From a virus: a stretch of DNA of 61,338 nt. The translations under genes and the position numbers were made by a program. Within the stretch, counting starts at the first letter, position 1; each line of letters starts with the position of its first letter. The notes below the pieces were generated by a model. The model saw nothing but the letters and a program-made list of their open reading frames with translations. It was not told the DNA's origin and made no database searches. Positions 47,306 to 50,997 of the stretch are shown here, in pieces. The stretch covers positions 1 to 61,338 of the IMG/VR virus record IMGVR_UViG_3300036944_001020. One strand, 5' to 3'.

Positions 47306-47929
47306 ATGGCTAATTTTTCTTTAGAAAATTTCGTAGCAGAAATAAACAAATCTGGAGTCGCAAAGCCCAGTAAATTTGAAATTGAAATTACGCCGCCACC
47401 ATCGTTGGCTAATTATGCTGAAATATCAAAGTTAGCAAGCGTTTACTGCGAAGTTGCGAATTTTCCATCACTGACAATAAATACAAAACAGCATCAAATC
47501 TATGGGCCAGCATATCAGCGCCCAGTTGGGAGTGATTATGGTGGAGATGGCATTTCGGTGAGTTTTTTAGTTGATAAAGATATGAATATCAAGAAATTTT
47601 TTGAATCTTGGATGTTTTCAATTGTAGATACAAATTCATATAATCTAAATTATCAATCAAGCTATACAACACAAATAAAAATATCACAATTAGATGAGGC
47701 AGATAATATTAAATACAGCATTAAATTAATTGATGCATTTCCAAGAAATATCTCGGATATGGGATTAAATTCATCTGCGGTAAATGCGGCTCATAAACTA
47801 TCAGTTGTATTTGCTTATAGAAAGTGGATTCCAGATATTATTTTTAGTAATACTGGAGCCGGTAGAGGGGGTCAAGGCGGCGCGGCTGCACCATTCGTAG
47901 ACCCAAGAAGACTTGATTTAAAAAAATAA
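47306..47929 (+). CDS. gp54-like tail tube initiator (tail-tube fold)
   Basis: 207 aa with a tail-tube-like layout: KPSKFEIEI start strand, YCEVANFPSLTINTKQHQIYGP, DMNIKKFFESWM helix and the C-terminal AHKLSVVFAYRKW strand. T4 gp54 (320 aa) sits on gp48 and begins tube polymerisation, and this gene lies near gp26 as in T4. It is shorter than T4 gp54. A Gly-rich tail follows the last strand. Confidence 0.6.
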   Translation: MANFSLENFVAEINKSGVAKPSKFEIEITPPPSLANYAEISKLASVYCEVANFPSLTINTKQHQIYGPAYQRPVGSDYGGDGISVSFLVDKDMNIKKFFESWMFSIVDTNSYNLNYQSSYTTQIKISQLDEADNIKYSIKLIDAFPRNISDMGLNSSAVNAAHKLSVVFAYRKWIPDIIFSNTGAGRGGQGGAAAPFVDPRRLDLKK

Positions 47930-47944
47930 TGGAGTGAATAGATT

Positions 47945-48640
47945 ATGGCATTACCAACAATGGAGACACCGACATATGAATTGGTGTTACCCTCAACCGG
48001 CAAAAAAATAAAGTATAGACCTTTTCTAGTTAAAGAATATAAAATATTATTAACTGCAATCGAATCTGACTTAGATGAAATTACTCGCGTAATCTATGAT
48101 TTAATAGATGCATGCACATTTAATAAATTGAATTGCTCAAAATTAGCACACTTTGATATTGAATATATGTTCTTACAGATTCGTGCAAAATCAATAAGTG
48201 AAATTGCATCGATTACTGTTACGTGTGAGTGTGGTACAAAAATTCCGTATGATTTAGATATCACAAAAGCGATAATTGAGAATAACGAAAAACAAAATAA
48301 TAAAATATTGATTACTGATAATATTGGCGTAGAACTTCGTTATCCAAAATTTAATGAAGTATTGGATTTATTTGAAAATAGATCAAAAGAAAGAGCAATT
48401 GATATTGTAAAAGATTGCGTTGTGTCGGTGTTCACTAAAGATGCAACGCAAGATAGAGATAGCTTTACAGACGAAGAATTAACTGTATTTTTAAATTCTT
48501 TCACTAAAAAACAGTTTGATAAATTAGAAGAATTTTTTGTTAAAATGCCAAAGGTGATTCAAAATATTGAAGCCGTTTGCCCAGAATGCAATACAAATAA
48601 CGTGATCAAGTTAGAGGGCTTGCAAAATTTTTTCGTCTAA
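47945..48640 (+). CDS. gp26: gp26 baseplate hub / tail assembly protein
   Basis: 231-aa protein of the gp26 family. PSTGKKIKYRPFLVKEYKILL near the start, VTCECGTKIPYDLDI in the middle and CPECNTNN near the end are typical; the two Cys pairs may bind zinc. Later structural work leaves gp26 outside the mature T4 hub, so it may act as a chaperone in tail assembly. Its last codons (AAT TTT TTC GTC TAA) contain a slippery sequence, and a -1 reading frame of 64 codons continues past the stop (see the next entries). Good Shine-Dalgarno (GGAGTG) upstream. Confidence 0.88.
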   Translation: MALPTMETPTYELVLPSTGKKIKYRPFLVKEYKILLTAIESDLDEITRVIYDLIDACTFNKLNCSKLAHFDIEYMFLQIRAKSISEIASITVTCECGTKIPYDLDITKAIIENNEKQNNKILITDNIGVELRYPKFNEVLDLFENRSKERAIDIVKDCVVSVFTKDATQDRDSFTDEELTVFLNSFTKKQFDKLEEFFVKMPKVIQNIEAVCPECNTNNVIKLEGLQNFFV

Positions 48641-48748
48641 CTCTTTCCCATGATAATTTAGCCAACTATTATCAATTAAATTTCTCGTTAATACATCACC
48701 ATAAATATTCATTAACGGAAATAGAAAATATGTTGCCGTGGGAAAGAG
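48625..48748 (+). promoter_or_regulatory. Predicted -1 programmed frameshift signal at the gp26 stop
   Basis: Codon-phased slippery sequences A-AAT-TTT (48625-48631) and T-TTT-TTC (48628-48634), a 6-nt spacer that contains the gp26 stop codon, then a 12-bp stem: 48641-48652 (CTCTTTCCCATG) pairs with 48737-48748 (CGTGGGAAAGAG), with one G-U pair and an 84-nt loop. Heptamer, spacer and stem match the classical layout of -1 frameshift sites. Confidence 0.75.
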
Positions 48749-48828
48749 AAATATACGTTACTATGCTTATTAATTATTTACGTGAAGAAAATGAAAAATT
48801 AAAACAAAAACAACTCAAGGGGAAATAA
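48634..48828 (+). CDS. -1 frame extension of gp26 (gp51-like position), 64 aa
   Basis: Open in the -1 frame relative to gp26 from 48601 to the TAA at 48826-48828. It contains RLTLSHDNLANYYQ, LTEIENMLPWEREIY and a charged helical tail NYLREENEKLKQKQ. The first ATG in frame is at 48730, which would give only 32 residues and miss the protein-like upstream part. Reading through the slippery site yields a 294-aa gp26 fusion. It sits where T4 has gene 51. The stop is 2 nt before the holin start. Confidence 0.65.
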   Translation, partial: RLTLSHDNLANYYQLNFSLIHHHKYSLTEIENMLPWEREIYVTMLINYLREENEKLKQKQLKGK

Positions 48829-48830
48829 TT

Positions 48831-49133
48831 ATGTCAAATGAAATTACCAATCCACAAAAAGATAACGAACACTGGATGAATAGTAAATGGCGTCCAGCGA
48901 TGGGGTGGACATATATGGTAACGTGCTTATTTGATTTTATTCTTGCCCCGATTCTTTGGAGTTTAATTCAAGCATTACATGGCGGACAAGTTACTTCTCA
49001 ATGGCAACCATTAACATTGCAAGGCGCAGGATTATATCACGTTGCAATGGGCGCAGTGTTGGGTTTAGCGGCATTCGGTAGAACGCAAGAAAAAATAGCT
49101 GGCGCAAATAACGGTGGCATGGATAGCAACTAA
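48831..49133 (+). CDS. Holin-like membrane protein (3TM / GTA-holin type)
   Basis: 100 aa. NSKWRPAMGWTYMVTCLFDFILAPILWSLI gives a first membrane helix after a Trp-Arg-Pro motif, and AGLYHVAMGAVLGLAAFGRTQEK a second; this pattern resembles holins of the gene-transfer-agent type found in many myoviruses. It would permeabilise the inner membrane so that the endolysin at 57.1 kb can reach its target. A strong Shine-Dalgarno (AAGGGG) lies 8 nt upstream. It sits between gp26 and the tape measure, and overlaps nothing essential. Confidence 0.75.
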   Translation: MSNEITNPQKDNEHWMNSKWRPAMGWTYMVTCLFDFILAPILWSLIQALHGGQVTSQWQPLTLQGAGLYHVAMGAVLGLAAFGRTQEKIAGANNGGMDSN

Positions 49134-49134
49134 A

Positions 49135-50997
49135 ATGGCATTACCGAAACTAAATGAAACCCCAAATAAAGATGGGGATATGCAAGTTGTTGATGTTAAT
49201 GGCACCAAACAACTCATAAAAATTAATGAAAATATAGAAAAATTGACGGATTCAATATTGAATTTGGTTCAAAATTCTAAAACTTCCAATACCAATACAC
49301 CTAACGCCCCAACTAATACTACGCCACGAAAAGCCCCTAGTAATTCTAGACCACCCAGAGTTCCAAATAATCAAGTCGGAAAAAAGCCGGGAAGTTTTAC
49401 AAAGGGATTTGTTTCTGGATTATTGGGCATAGAGGATGCGGTTAATTATCATACGGCGGATGATAAAGAAAAAATAATGGATCAGCGCGAGTATTCGGAC
49501 GCAATGTACGGATTTAATAGACGTTACAGTAGAGGGAATTATACTCCAGCGACTGATGCGTCAGTTGATCCAATGCCAGTTGCACCAGAAGCATTGGCAG
49601 TCATACCTGCTACACCAAATTTACCTGAGCCAGAAAAGAAGCAAGAAACTGTTAGTATTGGTGGGCAAAAGTTAGATCCAAAAAATCCAAAGGATGCTAA
49701 ATTAATAGAGCAAATTAACAAACAATTGGTGGAATCTACTCCAACTGAGAAAGTTATTGCTTCGCCAACTGAAAATTTAGCACCAGCAACAGAAAAAAAT
49801 ACAACAGAAGCCAATCAATCCTATGCAAGTGATGAGTTAAATACTTCTATTGGAAAATTACAAACATCATTTGATAACTTAGCTGCATCTTTAAATACTC
49901 GCCCCAACAATGATAAATCTTTAGAAACAGTTTTACAAGAAACGTTTGCTAAATTAGATAGTACATTAAAGGGTAATCAATTCAATGCTGAATCATATAA
50001 AGCTGGCTACATTGAACCATATAAACCGACATATGGCAAAGAGGGAAGATCTATTAGCCCCAAAGTTATTTCTGCAATCAGCACAGATGGGGGGCAAGTC
50101 GCATCACCTACTGCATCTGATATTAAGGTTGCACCAATAGCTACTCCGGTAACTCAAGTTGCACCAATAGCTACACCAGTCAGTGCAGGTGGAATTGAGC
50201 CAAATGAAGATTCCAAGAAAGAGACCGATAAACAGCAAGATAGAGAGCTATTAGCTCAGGCAATTGCTGATAAATTGGGAGAAGTTTTAGGGAGTTCGGG
50301 TGGAATTGGATTACCAGATATTGGCGATGTTATCCCAGATGGATTGGGGAAGTCATCCGGAAAAGCTGGAAAGGCTGGTAAAGCTGGAAAAATATTAAGT
50401 GGATTGAGTAAGGCGGCAAAGTTTGGTGGCCCGCTTGCAGCGGCGCTAACAGTCGGAGAATCTGCATATGCGGGATATTCTGATTATAACGATGCTGAAA
50501 CTCAATTAGCTAAAGGAGAAATAACCGCAGATGAAGCCAAAACTAAAAAAAGTGGCGCAGTTGGTAAGGGCGTAGGAGGTGCAGCAGGTGGGCTTGCAGG
50601 GGCTGCTACGGGAGCTTTGGCTGGTGCAGCAATGGGTAGCATGGTTGGGCCTGTAGGAACCGTCGTTGGAACCTTAATAGGCGGCGCAATAGGTGCGTTT
50701 GGTGGAAGCGAATTGGGCAAAATGGGCGGGGAGTCTATTGGGCGTGAGTTGAGTAAACCAGAATATTTAAAACCTAAAGTAGATGTTTCCGTTCCTGAAA
50801 CAAAGGGACAAAAATTATCACAGATTACAAATGATAATTCAGAATTAAAAAGTTCCGCAGATTCTAAGGTCGCACCACAACAAATAATTTCATCAAGTGT
50901 TACTAACAATAACAACAAAGATAATTATATTCAAATGCCTCCGAGACCAAGAAACGATATGAACAGCATAGAACGGTATTTAGATAAAGTAAGATAA
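49135..50997 (+). CDS. Tail tape measure protein (gp29 position)
   Basis: A 620-aa protein starting at the ATG at 49135 (MALPKLNE). It has a Pro/Asn/Thr-rich N-terminal half with low complexity, an Ala/Gly-rich hydrophobic glycine-zipper stretch (residues about 475-545, GGAAGGLAGAATGALAGAAM-type), and a helical, charged remainder. Such membrane-active segments are typical of tape measures, which set tail length and help DNA cross the inner membrane. It lies after gp26 as gp29 does in T4 and has similar length (590). Ends at a strong terminator. Confidence 0.7.
   Translation: MALPKLNETPNKDGDMQVVDVNGTKQLIKINENIEKLTDSILNLVQNSKTSNTNTPNAPTNTTPRKAPSNSRPPRVPNNQVGKKPGSFTKGFVSGLLGIEDAVNYHTADDKEKIMDQREYSDAMYGFNRRYSRGNYTPATDASVDPMPVAPEALAVIPATPNLPEPEKKQETVSIGGQKLDPKNPKDAKLIEQINKQLVESTPTEKVIASPTENLAPATEKNTTEANQSYASDELNTSIGKLQTSFDNLAASLNTRPNNDKSLETVLQETFAKLDSTLKGNQFNAESYKAGYIEPYKPTYGKEGRSISPKVISAISTDGGQVASPTASDIKVAPIATPVTQVAPIATPVSAGGIEPNEDSKKETDKQQDRELLAQAIADKLGEVLGSSGGIGLPDIGDVIPDGLGKSSGKAGKAGKAGKILSGLSKAAKFGGPLAAALTVGESAYAGYSDYNDAETQLAKGEITADEAKTKKSGAVGKGVGGAAGGLAGAATGALAGAAMGSMVGPVGTVVGTLIGGAIGAFGGSELGKMGGESIGRELSKPEYLKPKVDVSVPETKGQKLSQITNDNSELKSSADSKVAPQQIISSSVTNNNNKDNYIQMPPRPRNDMNSIERYLDKVR

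What the first reader, a model, noticed from the sequence alone, without database searches (positions are those of the whole stretch)
48601..48828. Canonical -1 frameshift signal joining gp26 to a gp51-position ORF
A codon-phased A-AAT-TTT-TTC slippery site ends gp26, a 6-nt spacer carries the stop, and a 12-bp stem (48641-48652 with 48737-48748) follows; the -1 frame is open for 64 codons and lacks a suitable start. This mirrors the G/GT tail-assembly frameshift of lambda-like phages, next to the tape measure gene. I do not recall it reported for T4-like gp26.
Basis: partly seen in the sequence, partly recalled or inferred. Interest (0 to 1): 0.85.

Follow-up and report, generated by a model that had tools for sequence, protein, structure and literature searches.

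The report
Tail-chaperone frameshift in T4-like phage
This uncultivated T4-like phage very probably makes the two forms of its tail-assembly chaperone from one gene, by a programmed ribosome slip (gp26 to gp51); the trick is widespread in distant T4 relatives and in essence already published, but the downstream RNA stem found here appears to be a less-described part.

Summary
gp26 (47945-48640) ends in an in-phase slippery run, followed by a 6-nt spacer with the stop codon and a 12-bp stem (one G·U). The -1 frame encodes a gp51 domain (phrog_634, E 2e-29) with no start codon before an internal ATG at 48730. One correction: the conserved heptamer is T TTT TTC (48628-48634), not A AAT TTT.

gp51 lies in frame -1 behind an in-phase run of at least six T in all 100 related loci with both domains, including cyanophages, Pelagibacter, Sinorhizobium, Pseudomonas and KVP40-like phages. 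Elsewhere in gp26, Phe-Phe is TTT TTC in 2 of 48 cases; at this site in 44 of 48. The stem is kept, with double U-A/C-G changes, in the window's lineage; several cyanophages have a compact hairpin instead. In T4-type phages gp51 is one ORF, a gp26-like domain plus this domain, and T4-type gp26 lacks the slippery codons.

So this is a -1 programmed frameshift making short and long tail-assembly chaperones, like lambda G/GT. Papers citing Vladimirov et al. 2022 indicate T4-like TAC genes with poly-T slippery sites are already known. A new member of a known kind; no frameshift was measured.

The parts
47945..48640 (+). gp26 homologue, 231 aa; short tail-assembly chaperone (zero frame)
   Evidence: PF12322 E 1.7e-55, phrog_150 E 5e-58; model pLDDT 86
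48601..48828 (+). open -1 frame; gp51 domain decoded from 48634 (64 codons) to stop 48826-48828; no own start
   Evidence: phrog_634 E 2.2e-29, also phrog_150 positions 232-276 E 5e-7; start codons listed
48628..48634 (+). slippery heptamer T TTT TTC, in gp26 phase
   Evidence: run of six or more T in phase in 100/100 loci; TTT TTC in 44/48 representatives against 2/48 Phe-Phe pairs elsewhere in gp26
48635..48640 (+). 6-nt spacer GTC TAA holding the zero-frame stop
48641..48652 (+). 5' arm of the 12-bp stem
48737..48748 (+). 3' arm of the 12-bp stem
   Evidence: outer 7 bp complete in 60 of 62 related loci that encode Leu-Ser at the 5' arm; U-A/C-G double changes at pairs 2 and 5
47306..47929 (+). 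tail-tube-like protein upstream (context)
   Evidence: phrog_45 E 4e-35
49135..50997 (+). tape-measure-like protein downstream (context)
   Evidence: phrog_794 E 1.4e-13

Best explanation
Most ribosomes read gp26 to its stop and make the short tail-assembly chaperone (231 aa). A minority, paused by the stem 6 nt downstream, slip back one base on T TTT TTC, bypass the stop and continue in the gp51 frame, making a 294-aa long form (gp26 minus its last residue, plus a 64-aa gp51 domain). By analogy with lambda gpG/gpGT, the gp26 part would coat the tape measure and the gp51 part would recruit tail-tube subunits. Shown here: the anatomy, conservation, homology and stem covariation. Inferred: that slippage occurs, its rate, the stimulatory role of the stem, and the chaperone function.
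For: gp51 is in frame -1 behind an in-phase run of six or more T in 100/100 loci with both domains, across very divergent phages. The codons TTT TTC are fixed at the site but avoided elsewhere in gp26. Of 48 dereplicated loci, 31 have no ATG/GTG/TTG that could start gp51 and 38 have no ATG. Stem: 23/23 representatives keep the 7 outer pairs against 14.5+-1.4 when codons are permuted within amino-acid classes (0/5000); RNAalifold finds the same 12 pairs on its own. T4-type gp51 (PP01, Aeromonas phage 25) is one ORF with a gp26-like domain followed by this gp51 domain, that is, the predicted frameshift product's architecture made as a single gene. T4-type gp26 (PP01) keeps Phe-Phe but as TTC TTT. 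Gene order is tube, gp26/gp51, tape measure. The fold search gives HK97 tail assembly chaperone 2ob9 as its most probable PDB hit, though weakly. Literature.
Against: No expression, proteomic or reporter data. The stem is absent from the FR/FC-encoding clade and some phages, so it is not universal. Compensatory changes are few as independent events: about 2 at pair 2 and 2-4 at pair 5, none discordant. Some relatives (K575, phiM9, phiM19, Yut2) have an ATG at or next to the gp26 stop, so re-initiation is possible there. The PDB match is not significant on its own (E 0.63).
Confidence: 0.9

Rival explanations
1. gp51 is made separately from its own start (a rare start codon, or re-initiation at the gp26 stop), and the slippery run is incidental.
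For: Several relatives have ATG at or next to the gp26 stop (K575, phiM9, phiM19, phi-Grn1), and most GenBank records that annotate gp51 show it as a separate gene.
Against: 31 of 48 dereplicated loci have no ATG/GTG/TTG before codon 14 after the slip, and no common start position exists. Annotated starts give truncated proteins, e.g. 30 aa in P-HM2, or no gene at all in S-PRM1, S-CAM8, S-H9-1, S-CAM7 and LPCS28. Even loci with an ATG keep the slippery run.
Confidence: 0.05
2. RNA polymerase slips on the T-run, so a fraction of transcripts carries an extra base and joins the frames without ribosomal frameshifting.
For: The T-run is the invariant element, and Melnitz-2 and HTVC008M have 8 T.
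Against: Runs are exactly 6 T in 97 of 100 loci, short for transcriptional slippage (general knowledge). The heptamer phase, 6-nt spacer and conserved downstream structures fit ribosomal slippage better.
Confidence: 0.04
3. Sequencing or assembly error splitting one fused gene.
For: Homopolymer runs are error-prone, and a fused homologue (T4-type gp51) exists.
Against: The same phase and run in 100 loci, including finished genomes of isolated phages.
Confidence: 0.01

Closest known systems
T4-like tail assembly chaperones gp26/gp51 (Vladimirov, Gautam, Davidson 2022, Virology 566:9-15; known here only through citing papers PMC10885494 and PMC12846349)
   Same: Short form plus a long form that is short plus an extra C-terminal domain; poly-T slippery sequences reported for T4-like TAC-N genes. 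That its TAC genes are gp26 and gp51 is my inference from the homology found here.
   Different: In T4-type phages the long form is a separate fused gene (gp51) and gp26 lacks the slippery codons. Here the long form needs a frameshift. I could not tell whether that paper describes a downstream stem.
Lambda gpG/gpGT (Levin 1993; Xu 2004, 2013, 2014)
   Same: -1 frameshift near the end of the upstream gene, between tail-tube and tape-measure genes; short and long chaperone forms
   Different: No sequence relationship was found by the tests here. The lambda slippery site is GGGAAAG (from memory). Here it is T TTT TTC with a covarying stem.
Vandenendeviridae/Andersonviridae TAC locus (phage Adele, PMC12846349)
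   Same: Poly-T slippery site, downstream frame routinely misannotated, -1 fusion inferred from conservation
   Different: GTTTTT motif; a different phage group, homology to gp26/gp51 not tested; no downstream structure mentioned in the passages read

Membership tests
-1 programmed ribosomal frameshift site | X XXY YYZ heptamer in zero-frame phase | tested here: met
   T TTT TTC at 48628-48634; conserved
-1 programmed ribosomal frameshift site | Structure 5-9 nt downstream (common stimulator) | tested here: met
   12-bp stem after a 6-nt spacer, covarying, z -4.0; the stimulatory effect itself is untested
-1 programmed ribosomal frameshift site | Measured frameshift product | not testable with these tools
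   needs a reporter or mass spectrometry
T4-like tail assembly chaperone gp26/gp51 | gp26 (PF12322) short form | tested here: met
   E 1.7e-55
T4-like tail assembly chaperone gp26/gp51 | gp51 C-terminal domain in the long form | tested here: met
   phrog_634 E 2.2e-29; the same domain at the C-terminus of T4-type gp51
Lambda-type TAC (G/GT) | Position between tail-tube and tape-measure genes | tested here: met
   with one holin-like gene (48831-49133) in between
Lambda-type TAC (G/GT) | TAC fold | tested here: inconclusive
   HK97 TAC 2ob9 has the highest Foldseek probability (0.57), but E 0.63 and TM 0.43 by target
Lambda-type TAC (G/GT) | Binding of tape measure and tube protein; absence from the virion | not testable with these tools
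   needs biochemistry and virion proteomics

The most novel reading that the evidence does not exclude
The frameshift in the window's lineage is driven by a conserved long-range RNA stem closing about 108 nt inside the gp51 reading frame, replaced by short hairpins in several cyanophages. T4-type phages lack the slip (Phe-Phe coded as TTC TTT) and use a duplicated, fused gene instead: one assembly requirement met by two different expression routes.
Probability: 0.6. Interest if true: 0.5.

Novelty: new member of a known kind. Interest (0 to 1): 0.38.

Why it matters
It explains why gp51 is missing, truncated or given a downstream start in many cyanophage and marine T4-like records: the gp51 domain matches 571 phage records, and none of the records inspected here joins it to gp26. 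It also gives a directly testable case of a conserved RNA stimulator and of a frameshift being exchanged for gene duplication and fusion.

Tried and rejected
A AAT TTT as the slippery heptamer: rejected, because the upstream codon varies. A universal stem: rejected; the pairing holds only where the 5' arm encodes Leu-Ser (60/62 loci complete, 0 in others). Rfam: no family at 48500-48900. Search of PDB sequences with the gp26 profile: nothing. Nucleotide relatives among named phages for 40000-61338: none. The Vladimirov 2022 paper is not held, so its content rests on citing papers. SUMAE (L092) has a gp51-like -1 frame but no T6 run, so its shift site is unclear. An initial query of the wrong frame was my coordinate error.

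Full report
What is there. The gp26 homologue (47945-48640; PF12322 E 1.7e-55, phrog_150 E 5e-58) ends CAA AAT TTT TTC GTC TAA. The -1 frame is open from 48601 to 48828 and encodes 64 residues after the slip. It matches phrog_634 'baseplate hub assembly catalyst' (gp51) at E 2.2e-29 and the last part of the gp26 profile phrog_150 (positions 232-276) at E 5e-7, so some database gp26 entries may already carry this extension. No ATG, GTG or TTG exists in that frame before 48730. The stem 48641-48652/48737-48748 is 12 bp with one G·U and an 84-nt loop.

Is it more than chance? TTTTTTC itself is not rare in the window (31 copies, below expectation), and a stem of at least 12 bp at such spacing begins at about 0.7% of arbitrary positions. 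The comparative evidence decides. In 100 of 100 loci where gp51 was found behind gp26 (the window, IMG/VR contigs and named phages), gp51 lies in the -1 frame behind an in-phase run of at least six T. L026 differs only in that its gp26 ORF is broken far upstream; its T-run is intact. Across 48 dereplicated loci the pair of codons is TTT TTC in 44 and another run of six or more T in the rest, while Phe-Phe elsewhere in the same genes is TTC TTT 23, TTT TTT 16, TTC TTC 7, TTT TTC 2. The codon before varies (AAT, AGT, GAT, TCT), always ending in T, which identifies T TTT TTC as the selected heptamer.

The stem. Among 62 no-indel loci that encode Leu-Ser at the 5' arm, 60 form all seven outer pairs and 2 form six; no other locus forms all seven. 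In 23 dereplicated members 23 form them, 22 by Watson-Crick pairs alone, against 14.5±1.4 and 7.4±2.1 when codons are permuted among sequences with the same amino acid (0 of 5000). Double changes U-A to C-G occur at pairs 2 and 5. On a gp26 tree these are few events (2 changes at pair 2, 4 at pair 5), none discordant, so the phylogenetic support is real but modest. The window segment folds at -26.6 kcal/mol against -13.4 for synonymous shuffles (z -4.0). S-PRM1, S-CAM7, S-SKS1, MC09, P-HM2 and S-H9-1 instead have compact hairpins a few nt after the slip (z -3.1 to -4.2). A clade encoding Phe-Arg/Phe-Cys there shows no consistent structure.

The T4 side. In PP01 (a Tequatrovirus) and Aeromonas phage 25, gp51 is a single ORF with a gp26-like domain (E 8e-13 and 2e-24) followed by the gp51 domain (E 4e-9 and 6e-18). 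This is the same architecture as the predicted frameshift product, encoded without a shift. PP01 gp26 retains Phe-Phe near its end but as TTC TTT, and is followed directly by gene 25.

Mechanism and function. The simplest reading is a -1 programmed ribosomal frameshift producing a 231-aa short and a 294-aa long tail-assembly chaperone. The locus lies after a tail-tube-like gene and before a tape-measure-like gene, with a holin-like gene between. AlphaFold gives a confident gp26 model (pLDDT 86). Foldseek finds T4-like gp26 and gp51 proteins in BFVD and, weakly, HK97 tail assembly chaperone in the PDB. The slippage, its rate, the stem's effect and the chaperone role are inferred.

Prior knowledge. 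Vladimirov, Gautam and Davidson (2022) identified TAC genes of T4-like phages. PMC10885494 summarises that some T4-like phages carry a short gene and a fused long gene instead of frameshifting, and PMC12846349 cites the same paper for poly-T slippery sequences in TAC-N genes of T4-like phages. The paper itself was not available. The finding is therefore a new member of a known kind. I found no description of the covarying stem, but the library searched lacks most subscription papers. None of the named-phage records inspected joins gp26 to gp51; gp51 is absent, truncated or given its own start.

Noticed in passing
window 1-61338: TTTTTTC is under-represented (31 against 43 expected from dinucleotide shuffles), consistent with avoidance of slippery runs.
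   Followed up: partly
L091 2825-2840; L099 1490-1510; L088 2716-2735: Vibrio phage K575, Sinorhizobium phage phiM9 and Stenotrophomonas phage Yut2 have an ATG overlapping the gp26 stop (TAATG/TGATG) in the gp51 frame and also keep the T-run: a possible dual mode of frameshift plus re-initiation.
   Followed up: partly
L092 2623-2872: Vibrio phage SUMAE has a gp51-like ORF in the -1 frame of gp26 but no T6 run; the shift site would be non-canonical.
   Followed up: no
L026 2020-2504: The gp26 ORF is interrupted far upstream of the slip site in this contig, probably an assembly error.
   Followed up: no
window 48831-49133: A 100-aa GTA-type holin-like protein (PF11351 E 8e-7) sits between the chaperone locus and the tape-measure-like gene.
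   Followed up: no
window 47945 and 49135: gp26 and the tape-measure-like protein begin alike (MALPTMETP / MALPKLNETP).
   Followed up: no
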